Below are positions 24,502-35,998 of a DNA stretch of 64,000 bases, one piece after another; position 1 is the first letter of the stretch, and each line of letters starts with the position of its first letter. Origin of the DNA: an uncultured Fibrobacter sp. (GTDB taxonomy: Bacteria > Fibrobacterota > Fibrobacteria > Fibrobacterales > Fibrobacteraceae); contig CAMJHM010000005.1 in assembly GCA_946405515.1 (NCBI GenBank), forward strand, positions 1-64,000, read 5' to 3'. Both the position numbers and the translations under genes were made by a program. The notes beneath the pieces were generated by a model that was not told where the DNA came from, did not search any database, and was given only the letters and a program-made list of their open reading frames with translations.

Positions 24502-25323
24502 TTAAGCCTCCTTCCCCTTGGTCAGCGGGAACAGTTGTAAATTCAAGCGATAGACCTTTTCGTAATCTTTTTCCTTGGCGGCCATAGCAACCACCTGCTG
24601 CCGAAGCTCTTCCAATTTTTGCACCAGCCATTGGTACGTAGATTCCGACATGCCAAGCGTCACGCCCGCAATATGGCGGTTTTCCGGCGGTACATTGTCA
24701 ATCGCCGAGGTCGCGAGTTTCGACATTTGGCGGTTCATCGAGCGCAATGCCAGGGGAATCGCCTCAGAAGAACCCGTCACAATTTTTTCCGTCTGTTCAT
24801 AAGTATCCTCACCAATCTTTTTCAAGAAATCAGCATGGACCATAAAATCAAGAGACTGTCGGACCTCGGCGGCACTCACCACGGAATAGCAGTTGCGGGC
24901 AAGTTCCAGCGGTTTTGCGCCCGGCATGATCGGGGCGAGTTCGCGCATGACCGGATTCACCCACGATTCAAAATATCGAAACGCTTCGGAATCAACGACG
25001 CGCAAACGACTTTCTTTCGCAATCTTTTGCATTTCATGGAATGCGCGCGTTTTCTTTTCGTCACTCTTGGCATCGCCAAAGCGTTCCATCGCACGGAAAT
25101 AATCGCGGTCAGTTCCAACAAGCCCCATAGCATCGGCGACACCTTCGACACCATTCTTGCTCAAGCCGCTTTTCCGTTCGCAGACGAGCTTTATGTAGTT
25201 TGGCGAAGAGAAACCGGCCAACCGGGAAAATTCGCGCCAAGTAAACGCAGAACAGCGTTTGCGTTCCTCGTAAAAATCGCTCATGTACTTGCGATAGTCT
25301 TGATATTCAATTATTGGTTTCAT
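24502..25323 (-). CDS. TIGR02147 family putative transcriptional regulator, second copy
   Basis: A 273-residue paralogue of the gene at 2625-3458, with the same start (MKPIIEYQDYRKYMSDFYEE). The helix-turn-helix-like region is WREFSRLAGFSSPNYIKLV, with SKNGVEGVADAMGL near residue 60. A central conserved segment reads SWVNPVMRELAPIMPGA, and the protein ends VYRLNLQLFPLTKGKEA. Identity with the first copy is highest at the N-terminus, around the central NPV-RELAP-MPG motif and at the C-terminus. It is probably a cytoplasmic regulator acting on its own cassette. Its promoter repeats the leaderless design of the first copy, and it is coupled to the lipoprotein at 22938-24500 by a one-base gap. 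Confidence 0.85.
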   Translation of the reverse strand: MKPIIEYQDYRKYMSDFYEERKRCSAFTWREFSRLAGFSSPNYIKLVCERKSGLSKNGVEGVADAMGLVGTDRDYFRAMERFGDAKSDEKKTRAFHEMQKIAKESRLRVVDSEAFRYFESWVNPVMRELAPIMPGAKPLELARNCYSVVSAAEVRQSLDFMVHADFLKKIGEDTYEQTEKIVTGSSEAIPLALRSMNRQMSKLATSAIDNVPPENRHIAGVTLGMSESTYQWLVQKLEELRQQVVAMAAKEKDYEKVYRLNLQLFPLTKGKEA

Positions 25324-25574: not shown

Positions 25575-26594
25575 ATGGAAAATACCAACCCTATGACAAA
25601 AGTAGACGAAACATCCGAGCCAAAACCGCACGACGCGTTCTTCCGCTGGCTTTTCGGCGACGTCGGACGGCTCCGGCACCTGCTGGTGCTTTCCGGCAAG
25701 GTGAACAGGGACATCGGCGAGTTCATCTCGGAAGTCAACCTCGACACGCTCGTGCGCATACCCGACTCGTATTCCGAAGTCGCGGAAACGGGGGAAGCCG
25801 ACCTCGCCTTCCGCGTGGAAGTCGCCTCGGGGGCACCGCTGCTCGTGGGCATCCTCGTGGAGCACAAGTCGGGGCGCGATTCCGGCACGCTCGACCAAAT
25901 CGCGCGATACGTGAATTCCGTGATGAAGATATACAGCGAGCACAGGGCTTTCAGCGGGCTCCCTACGATGGCCATCATCTTCTACAACGGGCGCGAGAAC
26001 TGGAACCCGCTCGGGAGCATCGAGGACAGGTATCCCTCGTGTTTCCGCGGGAGGATCCTCCCGTTCGCCTGCTCGTTCGTGAACATGATCGACATTCCCG
26101 ACAGCGACTGCCTCGCCTGCGAGGACACGGCCACGGGAATGGGCATCGTGGCGATGAAGTACGCCTACGACAGGGAACAACTGCTCCAGGTACTGCCGCA
26201 GTTCAAGGAGCCGCTGCAGCGGATGCCTTACGACAAGGCGGCTTGCCTGCTGGCGAAGATTAGTATATATTTGAAGGAGTACGTCACCAAGGACGTGCTG
26301 AAGGAGCTCGACATGGCATTCGTAAGCATCGGACAAAAATACGGTTTCGTGAGTGCCGGAGACGAATTCCGCAGGGAAATCGCGGAAGCGCGCGCGGAAG
26401 TGCAGGCGAAGACACAAGCCGAAGAACAAGCGAAGGCGCAGAAGCAAATTGCCAACGCACGCTCCGATGAGCAAGCGAAAGCAGAAGAAAACAAACTAGC
26501 AACAGCCCAGAAAATGGTCCGCGACGGAGTCATTTCCGTTGAAAATGCAATCTCCTACTTTGGGTATTCCAAGGAACAAATCCTTGCAAAATAG
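25575..26594 (+). CDS. Rpn family PD-(D/E)XK nuclease (often labelled transposase_31/YhgA-like)
   Basis: A 339-residue protein with the Rpn/YhgA-like nuclease fold at residues 15-230. It begins PHDAFFRWLFGDVGRLRHLL; the catalytic pattern is Asp76 in GEADLAFRVE, then Glu96-x-Lys98 in ILVEHKSG, followed by DQIARYVNSVMKIY. After a conserved helical region (DMAFVSIGQKYGFVSAGDEF), the C-terminal 80 residues form a Gln/Ala/Glu-rich coiled coil and end ISYFGYSKEQILAK. Rpn proteins are DNases; in E. coli some are toxic anti-phage proteins held in check by a small protein made from the 3' end of the same gene. This gene has the signals for such an internal product, and its 3' end is duplicated downstream. 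No terminal inverted repeats were found, so it is not treated as an insertion sequence. Confidence 0.85.
   Translation: MENTNPMTKVDETSEPKPHDAFFRWLFGDVGRLRHLLVLSGKVNRDIGEFISEVNLDTLVRIPDSYSEVAETGEADLAFRVEVASGAPLLVGILVEHKSGRDSGTLDQIARYVNSVMKIYSEHRAFSGLPTMAIIFYNGRENWNPLGSIEDRYPSCFRGRILPFACSFVNMIDIPDSDCLACEDTATGMGIVAMKYAYDREQLLQVLPQFKEPLQRMPYDKAACLLAKISIYLKEYVTKDVLKELDMAFVSIGQKYGFVSAGDEFRREIAEARAEVQAKTQAEEQAKAQKQIANARSDEQAKAEENKLATAQKMVRDGVISVENAISYFGYSKEQILAK
26243..26271 (+). promoter_or_regulatory. Candidate promoter inside the Rpn gene
   Basis: TTGCCT (26243-26248), a 17-base spacer and TATATT (26266-26271) lie within the coding sequence. They are followed by AAGGAG (26301-26306), six bases and an in-frame ATG (26313). 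All these elements are preserved in the duplicate copy. Confidence 0.5.
26313..26594 (+). other. Possible intragenic small ORF: C-terminal Rpn product (RpnS-like)
   Basis: An in-frame start at codon 247 of the Rpn gene, MAFVSIGQKYGF, would give a 93-residue protein with only the helical and coiled-coil part. It is preceded by a strong AAGGAG at ideal spacing and by an internal promoter candidate. In the E. coli Rpn systems such internal products bind and block the full-length nuclease. Whether it is made here is untested. Confidence 0.45.
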
Positions 26595-26631
26595 CGACGC
26601 GAACAAACCTAAATCAAACGCATTCATACGA

Positions 26632-26658
26632 ACGGTTCCCGAACGGGAGCCGTTTTTT
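26632..26658 (+). terminator. Terminator of the Rpn gene
   Basis: ACGGTTCCC-GAAC-GGGAGCCGT (one G-T and one T-G pair) followed by T6. It is repeated exactly in the duplicated copy. Confidence 0.8.
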
Positions 26659-26698
26659 CATTGCAAAAAAGCAGAAGAAATGCGCACGACGAGGCGGC

Positions 26699-26727
26699 TT
26701 GCCTGCTGGCGAAGATTAGTATATATT
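26699..26727 (+). promoter_or_regulatory. Duplicated promoter of the stand-alone Rpn C-terminal gene
   Basis: TTGCCT (26699-26704), 17 bases and TATATT (26722-26727), unchanged from the copy inside the Rpn gene. The predicted start of transcription leaves a leader of about 35 bases before the ATG at 26769. Confidence 0.55.
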
Positions 26728-26768
26728 TGAAGGAGTACGTCACCAGGGACGTGCTGAAGGAGCTCGAC

Positions 26769-26993
26769 ATGGCATTCGTTAGCATCGGACAGAAATACGG
26801 TTTCGTGAGTGCCGGAGACGAATTCCGCAAGGAACTCGCGGAAGCGCAAGCGAAGACACAAGCCGAAGAACAAGCGAAGGCGGAAAAAAACAAACTCGCA
26901 ACAGCCCAGAAAATGGTCCGCGACGGCGTCATTTCCATCGAAAACGCCATCTCCTACTTCGGGTATTCCAAAGAACAAATCCTTGCGAAATAG
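26769..26993 (+). CDS. Stand-alone copy of the Rpn C-terminal domain, candidate antitoxin
   Basis: A 74-residue protein, MAFVSIGQKYGFVSAGDEF to ISYFGYSKEQILAK, nearly identical to the end of the Rpn protein except for 19 missing coiled-coil residues. AAGGAG (26757-26762) lies six bases before the ATG. An open frame extends back to 26661, but its first codons are not homologous to Rpn and have no ribosome site, so the ATG at 26769 is preferred. It could be a decaying remnant. However, the reading frame is open, the substitutions are mostly conservative, the deletion is in frame, and its promoter and terminator are intact. Those points favour a functional small gene. The likely role, by analogy with E. 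coli RpnS proteins, is to bind the full-length nuclease and inhibit it. Confidence 0.6.
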   Translation: MAFVSIGQKYGFVSAGDEFRKELAEAQAKTQAEEQAKAEKNKLATAQKMVRDGVISIENAISYFGYSKEQILAK

Positions 26994-27030
26994 CGCCGCG
27001 AACAGGCATAAATCAAACACATTCATACGA

Positions 27031-27056
27031 ACGGTTCCCGAACGGGAGCCGTTTTT
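27031..27056 (+). terminator. Second copy of the Rpn terminator
   Basis: The same ACGGTTCCC-GAAC-GGGAGCCGT stem with a T5 tract, closing the stand-alone small gene. Confidence 0.75.
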
Positions 27057-27071
27057 GGTTTATACAATAAC

Positions 27072-27110: not shown

Positions 27111-28025
27111 CTATTTAATGGCTGCCGCCCCGGCAATGATCTCTTCGGGAACGCCCATAGAACGGAGGTAATCTATCCGTTTAGCTGTGCGGTCGGAAGC
27201 TCTCTTTTCGGCTTCAGCTTCGCCTTCGGCACGGGAACGTTTCTTCTCGACGTATAATTCGTAGTTTCGGTCGCTCATGTTCTTTGCCTCGCTTATAAGG
27301 AAGTCCTCTGTAAAAATACTCAATTTCGCACATTCGTGCAAGTGGGCAAACATCGAGCCTTCCGGCACGGGGAGCGGACACTCCTTGTTCAGCCCGTCGA
27401 TTACACGAAGCCACTGCGCCAGCATACTGTTGTCGGAAAGGTATTTTCCATTCAGGAACTTGGGAATCTCGACAAGCGTGATGGTCTGCTTCTTGTAAAA
27501 TTCCTCGTTTTCCTGATTCTTGAGGCGCACATGATGCCGATAGTTGCTCGATTCGGGGAACCCGCTGAACATCTGGAGGCTCACGAGGTTCAAGTTACGG
27601 AGTTTGTAATCGTTGCCCTTGATACGACTCGCCACAGTATGCTTCGCGGTATAGAACACAAGGCGGTCACTGTAAGTTCCGTCGTCTACATGTTGCACCT
27701 CAAGGACGATGCGGTCCATACCCTGGTCCATCGCCACGATGTCTGAGATAATCTCCTTGCTGAACGCCCCGGGCACGGCAGGATTCACGAAAGCGAGACG
27801 CTCTATACAGTCGCTGCCACAGAGATTGAGTACCGCATTCAAGAAGTCTACGGTCATCCTCTCGTTCTCGGGGTTACCGAAAATCAATTTGAAGATGGAG
27901 TCGTTGTAGATGTAGACGAACTTGTACTTCTCGCGATACTTTGCAATACAGGCGGAAACGTCGCCGCCAGCCTTGTGAGTCTCATTGATGTCGGCAAGCA
28001 TGGCCGCATACTGTTCTTTTGTCAT
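27111..28025 (-). CDS. PD-(D/E)XK nuclease family protein (TIGR01784/PDDEXK_2-like)
   Basis: A 304-residue protein of the second branch of the Rpn-related group. Its N-terminal region reads NDSIFKLIFGNPENERMTVDFLNAVL, the typical opening of the family. The catalytic pattern is Asp95/Asp100 in IISDIVAMD and Glu109-x-Gln111 in VLEVQH, with DRLVFYTAKH after it. The mid region (VSLQMFSGFPESSNYRHHV, LVEIPKFL) is also characteristic. The C-terminus has a charged helix (KKRSRAEGEAEAEKRASDRTAK) and a short tip, YLRSMGVPEEIIAGA, comparable in position to the tip of the neighbouring Rpn protein. It lies convergent to the Rpn unit; the two nucleases are not close homologues. A role in transposition is only a database label; mobility is not evident. 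Confidence 0.8.
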   Translation of the reverse strand: MTKEQYAAMLADINETHKAGGDVSACIAKYREKYKFVYIYNDSIFKLIFGNPENERMTVDFLNAVLNLCGSDCIERLAFVNPAVPGAFSKEIISDIVAMDQGMDRIVLEVQHVDDGTYSDRLVFYTAKHTVASRIKGNDYKLRNLNLVSLQMFSGFPESSNYRHHVRLKNQENEEFYKKQTITLVEIPKFLNGKYLSDNSMLAQWLRVIDGLNKECPLPVPEGSMFAHLHECAKLSIFTEDFLISEAKNMSDRNYELYVEKKRSRAEGEAEAEKRASDRTAKRIDYLRSMGVPEEIIAGAAAIK

Positions 28026-28255: not shown

Positions 28256-31200
28256 TTATTTAACTACAACATTATTGCATTGTATACCAGAGGAAGTTCC
28301 ATTGAGGTATACAGTATAATTCTTGTCGCTTATATTTTTGCTAATAGTCGTAGACGTTGATATATTTCCAGATGTTACGAAATTGCTACCTTCTTTCACA
28401 ACATAAGAACAATTTGCACAATTCGTCACATCTATTTGGAGCCTGTAATTTGGAATCAAAGAGCATTTAGAGCCAATCAATGCTTTATTGCACTGTCTAT
28501 CACAACTAACCCGAGGTGTTTTTACCTTAAGTTCAGGATTAACGGGACAAGACACGTCTCCTTCCGTCAATCTAAATTCATATGTTCCTTTGTTTTCATT
28601 ATTAGCAATAAAGGACGGCGGCATATTAATAGTAAGATTACTGTTATTATACATCCCCGAATTTCCTTCTGTAATTATTGTCCCAGCCGAATTTGTAATG
28701 ATCCAGCGTTCATTTTCAGCAGTAAGGCCATTCACTTTAAACTTGATACCAGTTTCACCATATGCGTATTCTGCCTTGTTGAAAGAACAGCTACCAACAT
28801 CGCCCAAATAAGCCTTTTCATTCAGCGTCTTAGAACAAACTACATGATCATTGAATTCAAGTGTATATGTTCCGCTACCAGGAATATCCACAAACAAATC
28901 ATTACTAGAAGTGATAATATGAGGCCATCCAGACAAGCTCCCTGCGTTGCCTATCGTATTACCAGCATTATGTTTAAGATTCGCATTCCATTGGCAACTG
29001 CCATTGTGGCATTTGTTAAACCTAACCTTGAATTGTGCCGTCTTATTGGAGGCAATTTCATCTATAGTAGAGCCTTGATCATCCACAAAGGAGCATTCAA
29101 CAATATTATCATAGCTAAAGAACGGCTTCGCCTCACAAGTTTTGCCATTAATAGCAACTTCATACGGTTCATCCTTGTAAATATTGAAGCTAACATCAAT
29201 GGATGAATTTCCCGTTGGATCCGTCTTTCCTGAAGAGACCAAATTACCCAAAGCCGACTTAATCGTGTATTGACAATCAGCACAGTTAGTCGTAAACGAC
29301 AATGTTGCTTCGCCACCCCAAGTAGTTGTACTCCCAAAGCCGCAGTACGAGATTTCCGTTGCTTCGGGCTTGTAGGTTACACTGAAATCACAGCCACCCG
29401 TATAAGAAGCATCCTGATCTTGAGCGAAAACATGGAAATTGTACAACCTTGTTCCGGCCGCCCCCGAATCGGAGAAGGACAACGTAGAATGCCCATTATA
29501 GCCAGATCCTCGATCGAGTTCTTTACCGCCACTTGTTGAAATCGTCCAGTTGCAGTTTCCATCCTCGCAGCCACCTATTACAGGAGTAAAGGATACAACA
29601 TTCGAAGGATCCTGATTCGTAATGGGGGCAGCAAGGCAACCAGAAGTATTCATGGATGTTATTTTACGAGCAGTCCACAGATGAGAACATTCTTCATCTC
29701 CATCTCCATAAATTTTGAAGACAACTATATAATTGCAAACGCCCTGGCTGCACTCACTCATTCCTGCGGGAAGTTTATGACTGACAGTCACCTCTCTTTG
29801 ATACTCATAAGTTTGCGGCGTTCCTACTTGCTGTGAATTCACACTTATTACATTTCCAAGAGGGTCTGTATAGACGACTTTCACAGAATCAAGAATTGTT
29901 CCATTCCAATAACCACCGTCCCCAAAAGTAACGTCCGCTTTAAAGTATTTGCCATCTTCTTCTGTTACTATTCTTGGATTACTGCAAGTTCCCTTTTCAG
30001 GTTCTCCAACGACTTCAAACTTATATCCACTCGGACAAGAATGTCCCATCACATCAAGTTGGTATTCATAGACGTCTTTAGACAACTTATTCTCTGGCGT
30101 GTTGATGGAAACACTCGGATGCATCTGAGTCAAACCCGCATTTGAGATAATCACACCATTCACAGGATTGAGACCAAATTTTGACGGATAACGAAGCGTG
30201 TAAGGACAACCTTCCGGCGGACAATTAGCAACACTGAAACTAAATTGGGGGACTCCAGTGCCCTGTGGGACATATTGCAAATCTACAGAATTATTCACAT
30301 AGCACTGTATCTCCAACGGTTCATATTCCGCCGGATCAGTTGTACATTCGCCCAATACATCGCCCTTTTCATCCCTAGCAGCAATCTTGAATGCATATGT
30401 GTGTGCGAGAGATTGTCCATATACTTCATGTTTAAAATCCTGCACAAAACTTTCACTACAGGGTTTAGACACCCTAGTTCCAGAAACCTCATAGCCATCG
30501 GCAACTAAAACCATATCACAACCACCTTTAGCCCGTTCAGGATTGACAATATCAGCAGAAACCGTCCACGAAGAATCACTAAAACTATACGACGCATCAT
30601 TGCAAGTAATGTGAAATTCATGTCGGCAAGAGCTTTCCACATGATCAACAGCAAATGAAGATGAAACATCCTTGAAAAGGATAGCGTGCAATTTCTGAGG
30701 ATTGAAGCCATGCTTATCCGAGACAGAAGCGACATCAATACTGTATTTAAGGTCGCCCACCTGATCAACATCTAGTGCACTAATATTTTCATCTTCATCC
30801 ACCAAGTATGCTTTTATTTCAGATGTTGTTGGTTCGGTCAATGTAAACGAAACCACTGCATCGCGAACATTGTAAACTTTATCTAAGGTTACAACACTAT
30901 CAACGCCAGCATAGCAATATCCATTGCTCTTTTGAGAAAGCATTTCAGTAAACGACTCGCTACACTGTTCGTATTCGCCCACGATAAAATCTCCGCAACT
31001 TGCATCGTAAACATGAGAATTGTTATTATCTTCATCTCGTTTACAAACAACAATAATGGACGCTTCATTAACATAGCCACTGGTCTTGGAGGTTTGTATC
31101 GGATAACCATGATACCCTTCAGTTTCAAATAAATATTTATTAGAATTGAGAGCCCCAAGATTACCATAATCTCTTAATTTCCTTGACGAGAAATTATAAA

Positions 31201-34200
31201 GACCCTTACCACTCTTTCCATCCGAAGCGCAGGCGATCTCATCACCTAAATTATGGAAAAGATCCCAATAACCAACACTCTGAAGAATCTGGTGATATGT
31301 TTGTCCTCTAGGAATCGATTTCCCATATTCAAACTTATCAGGGCTAACGTCACAACCATTGTAATAATAGAACACTTCACAGGACTTATCTTCAAACCAT
31401 GAAGACCGCCCCACCCAAGGAGTCACATCAGCATTATAAGGGACCATACCTCCAATATAATTTGTCTTAAAAGAGCAACTAACCTTCGGAGTGTCCCAAC
31501 AATCTGCATCATAATCGTAGCTACGCCAGCCGATATCAAAAACCTCAAATGACGTAAATACGTATCCTGTAGGCAGACGTAACGAACTGCCAAAAAAATC
31601 AGCTAGATCATTGATTCCATTTATTATCTTTTCAAGCCCATCTGGAAGTTTAAAAACATACGGGATTTCAAACTTTAAACCAACATAATTATGTACTTTA
31701 TCTTCTAATGTTTTATTGTTAAACTTGTTCCTTATTGTTTCATCATTCAAATCAAACGTAGCCACAGCCATCGTAGACTCTTCAGAATCCCATAAGTAAT
31801 TCTTGCTCAAAACGGCCCTAATCACGCTGCCATTAACATCAACATTAAGGTTCAAACGGGATAAACGACTCGCAGTTGCAATCCATGAATCATTAGGTCC
31901 TTGATTAAAACGAACGTCATGGCAACGATTAATATCATTTTCTTGACCATTAACATAACAAAGACGAGCATAAGCAGTCGGTTCCTTTGCAACAACGTTC
32001 AAAGTGAAGTATTCTGTCGCATTCGCATTTGAACGAATAATAAGGCCATCGTTAATGAGTAGAGCTTCACCTATCTTAAGGCCCTTCTCTATCGTTTCAA
32101 TAGCATCATCAATTCCGTCTCTAATGAATTTTGGCACCCACCATTTATCCATTGATGGTCGTTTCTCTCTGAGGTCTTGTAATAATTTTTCCCATTCAGT
32201 TATTATCTGAGCAAGACCCGATGGGATATTCAACATTGCTGTCATCAATCCATTTGGGCCAGCATCAACTCGATTTAACATAACCGTAGGTTTACCAGTT
32301 TTCGTTTTAAGGAAAACACGACGTCCAAAGCCTTCCGGATGTTTTATTTTTCCTTCTCTATTATCTATTTGGGGAAATTTGAAGCCCCCATTGTCATCAT
32401 TCGAATAAACAACCAACCAATCCGAGCCGTCAAATTGCCCCTCATACGGATTTTGACCAACAGAACAATGAGTGGCATCATTTTTACATTTGTCGATACA
32501 CTCTTTATTATCTTCTATATCCGAAGCAATGCACCAGCCATCATCTGAGTTACTAACACTACTCTTAACATCCTGGAAGTTCGTATAGAAACAATGGGCA
32601 TCTTTCTGACCGAACCATGCCGTCACAGTATCAACACCACCAAGCAGCAGCATTCTGAATGGCCTATCACTTATTTTATCATCCGGCTTATAGTCCCCAC
32701 AAGATTTTCCATTACATGTCCAATACGAGAAATCGCCAGATCCTCTTGAGAAATACACCGTATCTCCGGCATAAAAATTGTATACACACAAATCCTCCGA
32801 ACAATCGAAATTGTTTGGAATGTCAGAACCTTTCCCTAATTCCTGATGCTTAACATTAATCGTACCTTTTCTTACTCCTTCCCGTTTCAAAAAGAGTGTA
32901 TTGCGTTTACGTTTCAATTCTGCAGGTAATTTATACTCACCATCCGGTGATTTTAATTGTATACTCTTTGTCGGAACATACGCCGTGCAAAGATTGTCTG
33001 CAGAAAGTACACTTTCCAAATGGACCTCGTTACCTCCAGTACGGCATTCCCATTTTTCATTTCTTGTCATCGGGACACATCCAAAACCGCGAGCAGTCAC
33101 CCACGTTGTCTTGCTTTCATCTACCAAACCACCACAAGAAGGTTCTCTTACCAACTCACTACATTTGATACCATACTTCTGCTCAAACTCATTTTCATCA
33201 ATTTCGCGGCAATTTACATCTTCACGAACCAAAGTGGCTACATTTTTCGTAAACACATGAGCTGTACGTTTATTTTCATCTCCAACGATGCATTTCTCGC
33301 AGCCTGTTATATGGAAATACACGCCAGCAGCATCACTTTGCAGATCCGACTTTACATTGAATACCGGTATCGGATTATTAATTCCAGAAGCAGTCGTTGT
33401 CACCGTGTAAACTTTAGTATTGGGACTTGACTCGGGATTATATACAACAAACGCTTCTGCCGGTTCAACATCCCAGCCATCAGCAGGACTAAACGAAATA
33501 GTCACAGTCATCGGTACATCGCTCTCTGTGGCAACAAGCCGTACAACCGTGTGACCACCCGGACCAATCTTCTTTTCTATATCATCATCATGGAAGTGGA
33601 CAGAAGAATTTTCACTGAGGCTTCCTTCTACAACGACAAAGACCGGTATTGGTTTCTCATTATTGCCATAAGCACACAAATATTTGCCTTCTGCCAAATC
33701 ACCACTACTCGTAAGCATTTGATCCCCTGTAGGAATTCCCGAGCATTGCATCTTAAAAGGATCTTTCGAAGCCTTCAAATTTCCATTCAGCCCCACTACA
33801 TTGTAATAGTCCGAAAAACGGCCACGGGCGTCACGAGGCAAATAAATAATTCGTGGCAACACAACCTCAGACGATGTAACGGTGCCGTAGTCCCCAGTTG
33901 TCTTCGGCAAAGGCTCCTTATTCCTATACTGGGATTCCATTTCAACAATCAACTGCGGTGACGTTGCGATGTGATAGGAATCTTCAGTCTGATAGGGATC
34001 AATGCCATAACCATCAAAGCCAGACACCGAGCCTGTAAAAGACCGACACGTACCCGACACATTATAATCACAAAGTATCGAAGATTTCACTAATCCCTTG
34101 AACAATGGTTCATTAAACGTTACATTCAATGTATTGTTATCCCCAAGCGTATTCAACTGAGAACAGCCCTGCATATAAACAGACCCATTCAATGGAGAAT

Positions 34201-35998
34201 TCTGCATCATGAATCCTCCGATATCGTCTACACTATAAACGAAGTAATTAGACCTTGCATTGCTATTATCCTTCGTCTTAAGAGATTTATTTTTCCACCC
34301 GTTCGGCAGATAGACCAAAACCTTCGCATCACCCGTCGTTTCGGGCAATTCAAGATCTTTAGTAGGATTCGAAGTTGAATTAATGACAAAAATAAAATTA
34401 CCATTGAGCTTTTCATTCGTAGGACTCCACACAGGAGCATGATCCCAACTGACAATAAGCCATATCTTGTCATAGAGCATATCCGCATTGTTGGCAATAT
34501 TATAACATGTATTAAGGGCATTTACGGGAGCCTCAATCTTATCATCCCATATTTCACTGCCACAGCCATTTTTCGCATTAACAGTGTGCACATAAGAGAC
34601 GCCACCTGTCGTCATCAGGCTCAGCAAATCCGTATTGAACGAGAGTTTATCCTTAGCAATTCTAGAAGTGCCGCAATCAATCTTTTCACTTTCGTCCGTA
34701 ATCATATCACGATAAGTCACCATACTATCGGCATTCCAATCCTGATATTGACTAGGTTCAAGTGCCGACATCAACCGTCCATTATAAGCAATATAAATAT
34801 TGCCGTTCTTAGACTTAGCACAAAAATTGTACAAGGAGCCGCAATCGTTTGCACCATTATAATAGTCAAACTGAGCAAGACAAAGAGTGTCATCAATATT
34901 ATTACCAAACAGAGTCTTACCAATATAATTGGCACCAATATTACCTGTAGCTGTCGAATTTTCTTTAATAAAAGCATTACTATCTACATGAAAGTAATAA
35001 TCATTTGACGACGCCGAAGTGGGGAAATTGAGTTTCCCATTCAGCACCAAATTCCTATGCATATTAATATAACTAGCGCTCGCTTCGGCCTTAAAATGGT
35101 CAATGTCCCCATTCGAGGTCACGTTGCCGTAAAAGTCAAACTTACCGCCAGTGACCTCGCTCGGTGAATAAAGGCCATTATTTTTCACATCGTCAGAACG
35201 ATCATTGACCTTCATTCCACCATTCAAGTAAGACGACCCATAAACGTTCATCTGGCTTGCGGTCGACGTTCCGTAAACCTTGCCCCCAACATACAAATTT
35301 CTACGTATAGTAAGGTTCTTCAAAAAAGACAAGTCTCCAGTCACATACAAATCCTTGATAGAACCTCCATTATTCACATAGAAATTTCCATCTAACACGA
35401 GATATTCAGAAGCTGATATAGAGTTCAAAGCCTGGCCTTTGGAATTCTTTATCGCAGGAGACTGTTTGATAAACGCCGAAGTCACATTAATAGCACCTGC
35501 TGTCGTAAGGCTGCCATGGAAAGCATCTTTGTATGCCACGTTATGAGCTTCCGAGGGGATTTCCGCCTGATACAAGCCACCCACGTTGAAGATAGCCACT
35601 TCGCTATATTTCACATTTTCTCTCGTAGTACCTAACGAGACAATCTTAACCTTATACTTCGAAGAGCTCTCGATGTTCACGCCCATAAGCCAAACACTAT
35701 CACTCGTCTTGCCTGACCTCACACTGGGCAGCACTGAATTCAGTAAAATCGGTTTTTTGCCTTCATCAAAATACTGCTTGATAACAGCACCCAAATCATT
35801 TCCATTGTAAGTCATCCATGAGCGAGCAGCCTCGATACCAGATAAAGCCGACTGGCGGGCTTCATTTAGCTGCAACCGGGCCGCAGAGGACATGCCAACG
35901 GAACTGAGCCACTTATACGTGGCAGTAGCCGCAATGGTGGCCACCATCATGAACAGCAGCACGGTTACAAGAGATACACCTTTTTTCATCTTTCTCAT
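28256..35998 (-). CDS. Giant PilX-like minor pilin fused to a modular Cys-rich surface region
   Basis: A 2,580-residue protein. The N-terminus, MKKGVSLVTVLLFMMVATIA, has the prepilin form: a short basic leader, a Gly and then a long hydrophobic helix. The following 150 residues (ARQSALSGIEAARSWM) resemble PilX/GspK-type minor pilins. Residues 200-300 contain a regular beta-helix-like stretch (GSIKDLYVTGDLSFLKNLTI). Residues 300-1890 are Cys-rich with no family that I recognise. From about residue 1899 to the end come some seven modules of about 100 residues, each with an opening Cys and most with a C-x(2-5)-C-x-[YW] motif. It is the last gene of the fimT/pilV/pilW-like operon. An assembled pilus tip carrying this adhesin would fit the gene order, like PilY1-type tips, but with pilin and adhesin in one chain. 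The gene is visibly more AT-rich than its neighbours. An ATG three codons in is an alternative start. Confidence 0.8.
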   Translation of the reverse strand: MRKMKKGVSLVTVLLFMMVATIAATATYKWLSSVGMSSAARLQLNEARQSALSGIEAARSWMTYNGNDLGAVIKQYFDEGKKPILLNSVLPSVRSGKTSDSVWLMGVNIESSSKYKVKIVSLGTTRENVKYSEVAIFNVGGLYQAEIPSEAHNVAYKDAFHGSLTTAGAINVTSAFIKQSPAIKNSKGQALNSISASEYLVLDGNFYVNNGGSIKDLYVTGDLSFLKNLTIRRNLYVGGKVYGTSTASQMNVYGSSYLNGGMKVNDRSDDVKNNGLYSPSEVTGGKFDFYGNVTSNGDIDHFKAEASASYINMHRNLVLNGKLNFPTSASSNDYYFHVDSNAFIKENSTATGNIGANYIGKTLFGNNIDDTLCLAQFDYYNGANDCGSLYNFCAKSKNGNIYIAYNGRLMSALEPSQYQDWNADSMVTYRDMITDESEKIDCGTSRIAKDKLSFNTDLLSLMTTGGVSYVHTVNAKNGCGSEIWDDKIEAPVNALNTCYNIANNADMLYDKIWLIVSWDHAPVWSPTNEKLNGNFIFVINSTSNPTKDLELPETTGDAKVLVYLPNGWKNKSLKTKDNSNARSNYFVYSVDDIGGFMMQNSPLNGSVYMQGCSQLNTLGDNNTLNVTFNEPLFKGLVKSSILCDYNVSGTCRSFTGSVSGFDGYGIDPYQTEDSYHIATSPQLIVEMESQYRNKEPLPKTTGDYGTVTSSEVVLPRIIYLPRDARGRFSDYYNVVGLNGNLKASKDPFKMQCSGIPTGDQMLTSSGDLAEGKYLCAYGNNEKPIPVFVVVEGSLSENSSVHFHDDDIEKKIGPGGHTVVRLVATESDVPMTVTISFSPADGWDVEPAEAFVVYNPESSPNTKVYTVTTTASGINNPIPVFNVKSDLQSDAAGVYFHITGCEKCIVGDENKRTAHVFTKNVATLVREDVNCREIDENEFEQKYGIKCSELVREPSCGGLVDESKTTWVTARGFGCVPMTRNEKWECRTGGNEVHLESVLSADNLCTAYVPTKSIQLKSPDGEYKLPAELKRKRNTLFLKREGVRKGTINVKHQELGKGSDIPNNFDCSEDLCVYNFYAGDTVYFSRGSGDFSYWTCNGKSCGDYKPDDKISDRPFRMLLLGGVDTVTAWFGQKDAHCFYTNFQDVKSSVSNSDDGWCIASDIEDNKECIDKCKNDATHCSVGQNPYEGQFDGSDWLVVYSNDDNGGFKFPQIDNREGKIKHPEGFGRRVFLKTKTGKPTVMLNRVDAGPNGLMTAMLNIPSGLAQIITEWEKLLQDLREKRPSMDKWWVPKFIRDGIDDAIETIEKGLKIGEALLINDGLIIRSNANATEYFTLNVVAKEPTAYARLCYVNGQENDINRCHDVRFNQGPNDSWIATASRLSRLNLNVDVNGSVIRAVLSKNYLWDSEESTMAVATFDLNDETIRNKFNNKTLEDKVHNYVGLKFEIPYVFKLPDGLEKIINGINDLADFFGSSLRLPTGYVFTSFEVFDIGWRSYDYDADCWDTPKVSCSFKTNYIGGMVPYNADVTPWVGRSSWFEDKSCEVFYYYNGCDVSPDKFEYGKSIPRGQTYHQILQSVGYWDLFHNLGDEIACASDGKSGKGLYNFSSRKLRDYGNLGALNSNKYLFETEGYHGYPIQTSKTSGYVNEASIIVVCKRDEDNNNSHVYDASCGDFIVGEYEQCSESFTEMLSQKSNGYCYAGVDSVVTLDKVYNVRDAVVSFTLTEPTTSEIKAYLVDEDENISALDVDQVGDLKYSIDVASVSDKHGFNPQKLHAILFKDVSSSFAVDHVESSCRHEFHITCNDASYSFSDSSWTVSADIVNPERAKGGCDMVLVADGYEVSGTRVSKPCSESFVQDFKHEVYGQSLAHTYAFKIAARDEKGDVLGECTTDPAEYEPLEIQCYVNNSVDLQYVPQGTGVPQFSFSVANCPPEGCPYTLRYPSKFGLNPVNGVIISNAGLTQMHPSVSINTPENKLSKDVYEYQLDVMGHSCPSGYKFEVVGEPEKGTCSNPRIVTEEDGKYFKADVTFGDGGYWNGTILDSVKVVYTDPLGNVISVNSQQVGTPQTYEYQREVTVSHKLPAGMSECSQGVCNYIVVFKIYGDGDEECSHLWTARKITSMNTSGCLAAPITNQDPSNVVSFTPVIGGCEDGNCNWTISTSGGKELDRGSGYNGHSTLSFSDSGAAGTRLYNFHVFAQDQDASYTGGCDFSVTYKPEATEISYCGFGSTTTWGGEATLSFTTNCADCQYTIKSALGNLVSSGKTDPTGNSSIDVSFNIYKDEPYEVAINGKTCEAKPFFSYDNIVECSFVDDQGSTIDEIASNKTAQFKVRFNKCHNGSCQWNANLKHNAGNTIGNAGSLSGWPHIITSSNDLFVDIPGSGTYTLEFNDHVVCSKTLNEKAYLGDVGSCSFNKAEYAYGETGIKFKVNGLTAENERWIITNSAGTIITEGNSGMYNNSNLTINMPPSFIANNENKGTYEFRLTEGDVSCPVNPELKVKTPRVSCDRQCNKALIGSKCSLIPNYRLQIDVTNCANCSYVVKEGSNFVTSGNISTSTTISKNISDKNYTVYLNGTSSGIQCNNVVVK
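28259..30304 (-). repeat. Seven tandem Cys-containing modules in the giant pilin
   Basis: Module starts, by their first Cys, are near residues 1899, 2004, 2122, 2217, 2300, 2398 and 2497. The internal motif appears as NCPPEGCPY, ECSQGVCNY, GCEDGNCNW, NCADCQY, KCHNGSCQW, a Cys-free version (ENERW) and NCANCSY. The spacing and the alternating hydrophobic strands suggest Ig-like folds with a disulphide. Confidence 0.65.

What the first reader, a model, noticed from the sequence alone, without database searches (positions are those of the whole stretch)
26230..27057. An Rpn nuclease followed by a duplicated, self-contained C-terminal gene: a candidate toxin/immunity pair
The 3' end of the Rpn gene is duplicated in tandem. 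The duplicated unit begins a few bases upstream of a promoter-like TTGCCT-N17-TATATT, keeps the AAGGAG-ATG and ends with the copied terminator, so it is a complete gene for a 74-residue protein without the nuclease domain. Reported E. coli Rpn systems use a small C-terminal protein, made inside the gene, as inhibitor of the toxic nuclease. Here that inhibitor seems to have been split off as its own gene, with a 19-residue in-frame loss in the coiled coil and otherwise few changes. I know of no described Rpn locus with a free-standing duplicated RpnS. The sequence facts are direct; the function is inferred.
Basis: partly seen in the sequence, partly recalled or inferred. Interest (0 to 1): 0.85.

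Follow-up and report, generated by a model that had tools for sequence, protein, structure and literature searches.

The report
Free-standing spare tail of Rpn nuclease
Next to a toxic-type DNA-cutting gene of a gut Fibrobacter sits a small complete gene copied from that gene's own end; the arrangement is already known from E. coli, but here the copies look like interchangeable 'spare tails' that usually do not match their neighbour, which questions the simple toxin-plus-antidote reading.

Summary
An intact Rpn (PF04754) nuclease gene (25575-26594) is followed by a tandem copy of its 3' end (26686-27056). The copy is a complete unit: TTGCCT-N17-TATATT, AAGGAG-ATG, a 74-codon ORF, terminator. 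The novelty claim is wrong: free-standing duplicated RpnS genes are described downstream of E. coli rpnE (ypaA) and rpnC (PMC10327210).

New here:
(1) All 88 Fibrobacter rpn genes tested keep the in-gene -10 box TATATT (1.5 expected from codon usage), with conserved -35 TTG and RBS: strong evidence for an internal RpnS promoter.
(2) Free-standing tails recur in the genus, intact, with dN<<dS.
(3) The neighbouring tail usually differs in helix length or end type: 9 of 10 Fibrobacter pairs, 6 of 6 E. coli rpnE/ypaA pairs. In the one published test (RpnC), one extra 4-residue repeat abolishes inhibition, so the 19-residue loss argues against S being its present neighbour's antidote.
(4) Tail cassettes move between large-gene and small-gene positions of different species (99.0% identical cassette inside 77-94% flanks).

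Best reading: a real, expressed RpnS paralogue, probably immunity to other or former tail specificities and a recombination donor. Function is inferred.

The parts
25575..26594 (+). L: full-length Rpn (YhgA-like) PD-(D/E)XK nuclease gene, 339 aa
   Evidence: PF04754 E 7.7e-14, residues 17-217; open frame; start codon chosen from the ORF list
25800..25868 (+). Catalytic motif codons D76 (25800-25802) and E96-H-K98 (25860-25868)
   Evidence: the corresponding columns (D, E-H-K) are invariant in the N-domain alignment of Fibrobacter Rpn genes
26243..26271 (+). Internal promoter inside L: TTGCCT (26243-26248), 17 nt, TATATT (26266-26271)
   Evidence: pattern; TATATT in 88/88 homologous genes against 1.5 expected from codon usage; synonymous-site excess at the -35 TTG, the -10 box and the RBS
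26313..26594 (+). Predicted internal RpnS (93 aa) with RBS AAGGAG 26301-26306 and ATG 26313
   Evidence: sequence; RBS bases conserved beyond codon expectation
26630..26655 (+). Intrinsic terminator of L
26686..27056 (+). Duplicated unit S (promoter to terminator)
26699..26727 (+). Copied promoter of S: TTGCCT-N17-TATATT
   Evidence: identical in G059 and G021, and also kept in G012
26769..26993 (+). S: free-standing RpnS-like gene, 74 aa, RBS AAGGAG 26757-26762
   Evidence: intact ORF; dN 0.023, dS 0.35 against the L tail; predicted long helix plus two short helices
27029..27054 (+). Copied terminator of S
27111..28025 (-). Convergent neighbour: PDDEXK_2 / TIGR01784 Rpn-family gene; a PDDEXK_2-type gene end is also found convergent in G012, G059 and G021 (synteny marker, not part of the S mechanism)

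Best explanation
S is a functional free-standing RpnS gene that arose by copying the internal promoter-to-terminator unit of an rpn gene. It makes a small helical protein (long dimerisation helix plus a short helical end) from its own promoter. Because its helix is 19 residues shorter than the tail of the adjacent nuclease, it most likely does not neutralise that nuclease, which encodes its own matched internal RpnS. It more likely neutralises Rpn nucleases with a matching tail (a former or future allele of this locus, or one arriving by gene transfer) and serves as a donor cassette when recombination between the direct repeats gives the nuclease a new tail, so that an antidote for the new specificity is already in the cell. 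Shown: gene structure, promoter conservation, intact and constrained ORFs, tail mismatch, cassette movement between S and L positions. Inferred: expression, binding specificity, immunity and donor role.
For: TATATT present in 88/88 L genes against 1.5 expected; codon-corrected conservation at the -35 TTG, -10 and RBS while many nearby third positions show little excess. S units in the G000/G012/G059/G021 locus and, independently, in G036/G038 begin just upstream of the -35. All the tandem S ORFs examined are open; orthologous S pairs have dN/dS about 0.05-0.36, including S genes with no rpn nuclease domain detected within the fetched flank. Tail mismatch in 9/10 Fibrobacter pairs, no better than random pairing, and in 6/6 distinct E. 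coli rpnE/ypaA pairs; one added 4-aa repeat abolishes inhibition in RpnC. Cassette of G012 S against G000 L 193/195 identical while 5' flank is 94.4%, 3' flank 76.7%, N-domain 89.8%; 64 cassette sites join G012 S to G000 L and 2 to its own L, whereas the 5' flank is 5 to 1 the other way. Sequence homologous to the end of a type-2 tail (CGCCGCGAACAGGCATAA) is left after the stop of type-1 tails. E. coli strains with a single gene carry the large gene with the small gene's end.
Against: No expression or binding data. The repeat-number rule was shown for RpnC only, and these coils are not 4-residue repeats. In G059, L and S tails are identical, as a cognate antitoxin would be (it may be a recent duplication or conversion). 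The low dN/dS between window L and S could have been acquired while both cassettes were inside nuclease genes. The 3' flank of the cassette exchange is mixed (11 against 8 sites).
Confidence: 0.5

Rival explanations
1. Cognate toxin/antitoxin pair: S is an extra dose of antidote for the adjacent nuclease, made from its own promoter.
For: RpnS inhibits RpnL in E. coli and the free-standing RpnES is made; G059 has identical L and S tails; S shares the conserved MAFVSIGQKYGFVSAGDEFR start and the C-terminal end with L.
Against: 19 residues missing in the helix that sets specificity; mismatch in 9/10 Fibrobacter and 6/6 E. coli pairs; L already encodes a matched internal S with conserved promoter and RBS.
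Confidence: 0.22
2. By-product or silent cassette: rpn loci recombine often and leave copies of the 3' end; S is DNA material for tail switching and its protein has no role.
For: Cassette exchange and mosaic flanks; E. coli strains in which the two genes are fused.
Against: Promoter, RBS, ORF and terminator all kept; no broken ORF among the tandem copies seen; S orthologues under purifying selection, also where no nuclease domain was found nearby.
Confidence: 0.15
3. Regulator: S acts through its helix-turn-helix-like fold or mixed dimers on Rpn expression or on many Rpn proteins, regardless of helix length.
For: HTH-like structures, and E. coli RpnA-S (7th0) at rank 2, among the weak fold matches; PMC10327210 reports an HHPred relation of RpnS to HTH motifs.
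Against: Model confidence is modest (pLDDT 70) and no fold match reaches E < 1; no operator-like site was looked for or found.
Confidence: 0.1

Closest known systems
E. coli rpnE-ypaA (rpnE-S) and rpnC plus downstream rpnC-S (PMC10327210)
   Same: full-length Rpn nuclease gene followed by a free-standing copy of its RpnS end, arisen independently at each locus; helix-length variation; loss by fusion
   Different: in E. coli MG1655 the copy begins with its RBS right after the large gene's stop (operon-like, as in Fibrobacter G018, G043, G069); here the copy carries its own promoter and the large gene's terminator lies between, so it is a separate transcription unit; coil units are 7- or 11-residue rather than 4-residue; tail types are exchanged between positions
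Gene-within-gene RpnL/RpnS antitoxin (RpnA-S, PDB 7TH0)
   Same: small C-terminal protein made inside the nuclease gene; long first helix plus short helices; variable-length helix
   Different: no sequence match in the PDB set and only a weak fold match to 7TH0
Orphan C-terminal/immunity modules of CDI and Rhs polymorphic toxins (general knowledge, not tested)
   Same: downstream displaced specificity modules that can recombine into the main gene
   Different: an intracellular defence nuclease, not a secreted toxin; here the module itself is both tail and candidate antidote

Membership tests
Rpn / YhgA-like nuclease (PF04754, COG5464) | PF04754 domain above cut-off | tested here: met
   52.2 bits against a cut-off of 21
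Rpn / YhgA-like nuclease (PF04754, COG5464) | PD-(D/E)XK catalytic residues | tested here: met
   D76 and E96-H-K98, columns invariant in the alignment
Rpn / YhgA-like nuclease (PF04754, COG5464) | DNA cleavage and toxicity | not testable with these tools
   needs protein or expression assays
RpnS internal antitoxin | internal promoter, RBS and start codon in the nuclease gene | tested here: met
   88/88 TATATT; synonymous-site excess at -35, -10 and RBS
RpnS internal antitoxin | compact three-helix fold with a long first helix | tested here: inconclusive
   model pLDDT 70: long helix 15-52 then two short helices; 7TH0 at rank 2 but E 2.1, TM by target 0.69
RpnS internal antitoxin | helix repeat number equal to that of the nuclease it inhibits | tested here: not met
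   window S 74 aa against in-gene tail 93 aa; rule from the RpnC experiment in PMC10327210
RpnS internal antitoxin | binds and inhibits RpnL | not testable with these tools
   needs co-purification and SOS or growth assays
DUF4351 (PF14261), a Pfam name used for some free-standing RpnS | Pfam match | tested here: not met
   no Pfam family above cut-off for S

The most novel reading that the evidence does not exclude
Fibrobacter (and probably E. coli) rpn loci are a specificity-switching defence system. Free-standing RpnS genes are a bank of alternative tails; recombination between the conserved promoter/RBS segment and the 3' end swaps the nuclease's tail, and the pre-existing small gene protects the cell from the new nuclease. 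This would explain why neighbours so often mismatch and why S of one species equals the L tail of another.
Probability: 0.3. Interest if true: 0.78.

Novelty: new variant of a known kind. Interest (0 to 1): 0.52.

Why it matters
Free-standing RpnS genes are published as second copies of the antidote. The length mismatch seen in two phyla, plus cassette exchange between small-gene and large-gene positions, suggests a different role (immunity to other specificities and a tail donor) and makes it directly testable by a small L-by-S matrix. The codon-level promoter signal gives a simple genomic test for gene-within-gene antitoxins in genomes without any expression data.

Tried and rejected
Assembly or strain-mixture artefact: rejected, because orthologous loci in three further genomes carry the same unit with different sequences. 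Decayed full-length second rpn gene: rejected, because the S unit starts just upstream of the -35 with no nuclease remnant, and the same boundary appears in an unrelated subfamily, G036/G038. Known RNA element in the unit: none in Rfam. PADLOC defence models: no hit for L, S or the neighbour. PDB sequence search with S: no relative. The sigma-70 pattern scan alone is uninformative (2 found, 1.7 expected in shuffles). A first dN/dS attempt on the orphan S genes failed for a regular-expression reason and was redone.

Full report
The window comes from a Fibrobacter genome assembly. The gene at 24502-25323 is a TIGR02147 (Fsuc_second) protein, and the named relatives of S are all rumen or gut Fibrobacter. 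The genome searched as 'own' is 77% complete in 174 contigs and holds one PF04754 gene.

Observation. The gene at 25575-26594 is an Rpn/YhgA-like nuclease (PF04754, 52 bits). Its catalytic D76 and E96-H-K98 fall in columns that are invariant in the alignment of Fibrobacter relatives. Its last 428 bases are present again as 26686-27056 with 57 nt missing. The copy holds TTGCCT-N17-TATATT, AAGGAG-N6-ATG, an open frame of 74 codons and the terminator hairpin. L tail and S differ by 13 synonymous and 4 amino-acid changes over 74 codons (dS 0.35, dN 0.023).

Prior knowledge. PMC10327210 shows that E. coli Rpn genes make an internal C-terminal protein, RpnS, that blocks the toxic full-length RpnL. 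It also reports that a second RpnS copy lies downstream of rpnE (ypaA) and, in some strains, of rpnC, with independent origins. The arrangement is therefore not new. The same paper shows for RpnC that adding a single 4-residue repeat to one partner abolishes inhibition and adding it to both restores it.

Internal promoter. I took 88 Fibrobacter L genes that contain the amino-acid motif K-I-x-x-Y-L and are 180-280 codons into the frame. All 88 spell TATATT there. Codon usage of the same genes predicts 1.5; Leu is TTA in 53 of 88 against 4% background. A position-by-position comparison with codon expectation shows peaks at the -35 TTG (T at 94% against 25% expected), at TATATT 17 nt further on, and at the RBS; many other third positions nearby show little excess, although some downstream positions (for example a Ser codon after the start) also deviate. 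The genes are related, so counts are not independent, but the contrast within the same genes is a built-in control. An internal promoter for RpnS is thus strongly supported in this phylum. No transcript was measured.

Free-standing tails are recurrent. Of about 116 full-length L loci with downstream sequence, eight have a same-strand tail copy directly after them: the window, G012, G059, G052, G018 (two copies), G043, G036 and G023. Further copies were found in G021, G038, G069 and G067 and at loci where no nuclease domain was detected in the flank fetched. All the tandem ones have open reading frames from the RBS-linked start. Two layouts occur. In one, S begins just upstream of the -35 of the copied promoter: G000, G012, G059, G021 and, in a different subfamily, G036 and G038. 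In the other, S overlaps or follows the end of L, as E. coli ypaA does: G018 first copy, G043, G069. Orthologous S genes evolve with dN well below dS: G043/G069 0.037 against 0.70; G036/G038 0.093 against 0.63; orphans L189/L190 0.030 against 0.26. The highest ratios are about 0.4-0.5 for comparisons that cross tail types or involve recently exchanged cassettes.

Neighbours do not match. Lengths of the tail from the internal ATG (L / S): window 93/74, G012 85/85 but of different end type, G059 81/81 identical, G052 78/77 of different type, G018 87/78 and 76, G043 76/98, G036 66/73, G023 78/95 of different type, G069 76/98, G038 80/73. One pair of ten matches; random pairing gives 0.5. Differences within a type are 7, 11 or 22 residues, units that keep coiled-coil register; the window's 19 can be read as 8+11 or 4+15. 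In E. coli rpnE/ypaA I sampled nine strains with both genes in which the L tail could be read, giving six distinct combinations: repeat numbers of L and S are 0/1, 3/1, 5/2, 8/1, 8/4 and 5/1, never equal. Three single-gene strains carry the large gene with the small gene's ending. By the published RpnC rule the neighbour S should not be an inhibitor of L. This is inference by analogy; the rule has been tested for one protein.

Cassettes move. In the orthologous locus, the coil-plus-end cassette of G012 S is 193/195 identical to the tail of window L, although the nuclease domains are 89.8% identical, the 5' flanks 94.4% and the 3' flanks 76.7%. Sites joining G012 S to window L versus to its own L are 64:2 in the cassette, 1:5 in the 5' flank and 8:11 in the 3' flank. 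After the stop codon of type-1 tails the sequence CGCCGCGAACAGGCATAA remains, the homologue of the last codons of type-2 tails, so the type-1 end replaced the inside of a type-2 tail. Tails therefore recombine in and out of both positions.

Mechanism. The most economical account is that S is an expressed RpnS paralogue whose specificity belongs to other tails, that it protects against nucleases with such tails, and that it doubles as a donor for tail replacement. Steps shown: structure, promoter conservation, constraint, mismatch, exchange. Steps inferred: expression, binding specificity, protection, switching within a lineage. The simple reading of S as extra antidote of its neighbour remains possible (G059 is compatible with it) but is less likely for this window. 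The structure model of S (pLDDT 70) shows a long helix and two short helices, and RpnA-S (7TH0) is the second fold match, but at an insignificant E-value.

Verdict.

Noticed in passing
L087, L112, L183, L198, L201, L207, L237-L246 (Fibrobacter rpn genes outside the window): A 65-66 nt imperfect hairpin (AAACCC...GGAAAAGCAAGCTTTTCC...GGGTTT) is inserted at the same site just after TATATTT in rpn genes of several subfamilies. It ends or shifts the nuclease frame but leaves the RpnS RBS and ATG; 11 of the 12 full-length copies found in 80 genomes lie in or next to rpn genes.
   Followed up: partly
L184, L187, L189, L190: An orthologous orphan RpnS gene without a detected rpn nuclease domain nearby, in four genomes, with a conserved upstream sequence and terminator but different C-terminal end types (L187 differs).
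   Followed up: partly
L195, L202, L205, L196: Nuclease domain and tail separated by a stop or frameshift while the tail ORF with its RBS stays open: another route to a free-standing RpnS, or simple decay of the nuclease.
   Followed up: no
window 27111-28025: Convergent second Rpn-family gene (PDDEXK_2, TIGR01784) with its own short helical C-terminal end; whether it also has an internal start was not examined.
   Followed up: no
window 28256-35998: 2580-codon ORF whose start looks like a type IV pilin-type signal (KKGVSLVTVLLFMMVATIA), a very large surface-type protein.
   Followed up: no
L223 and 5,371 E. coli genomes: Nearly all complete E. coli genomes (5,371 of 5,426) have an rpnE match. 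RefSeq calls the free-standing gene variously a pseudogene, a hypothetical protein or an 'Rpn/YhgA-type helix-turn-helix domain-containing protein'.
   Followed up: partly
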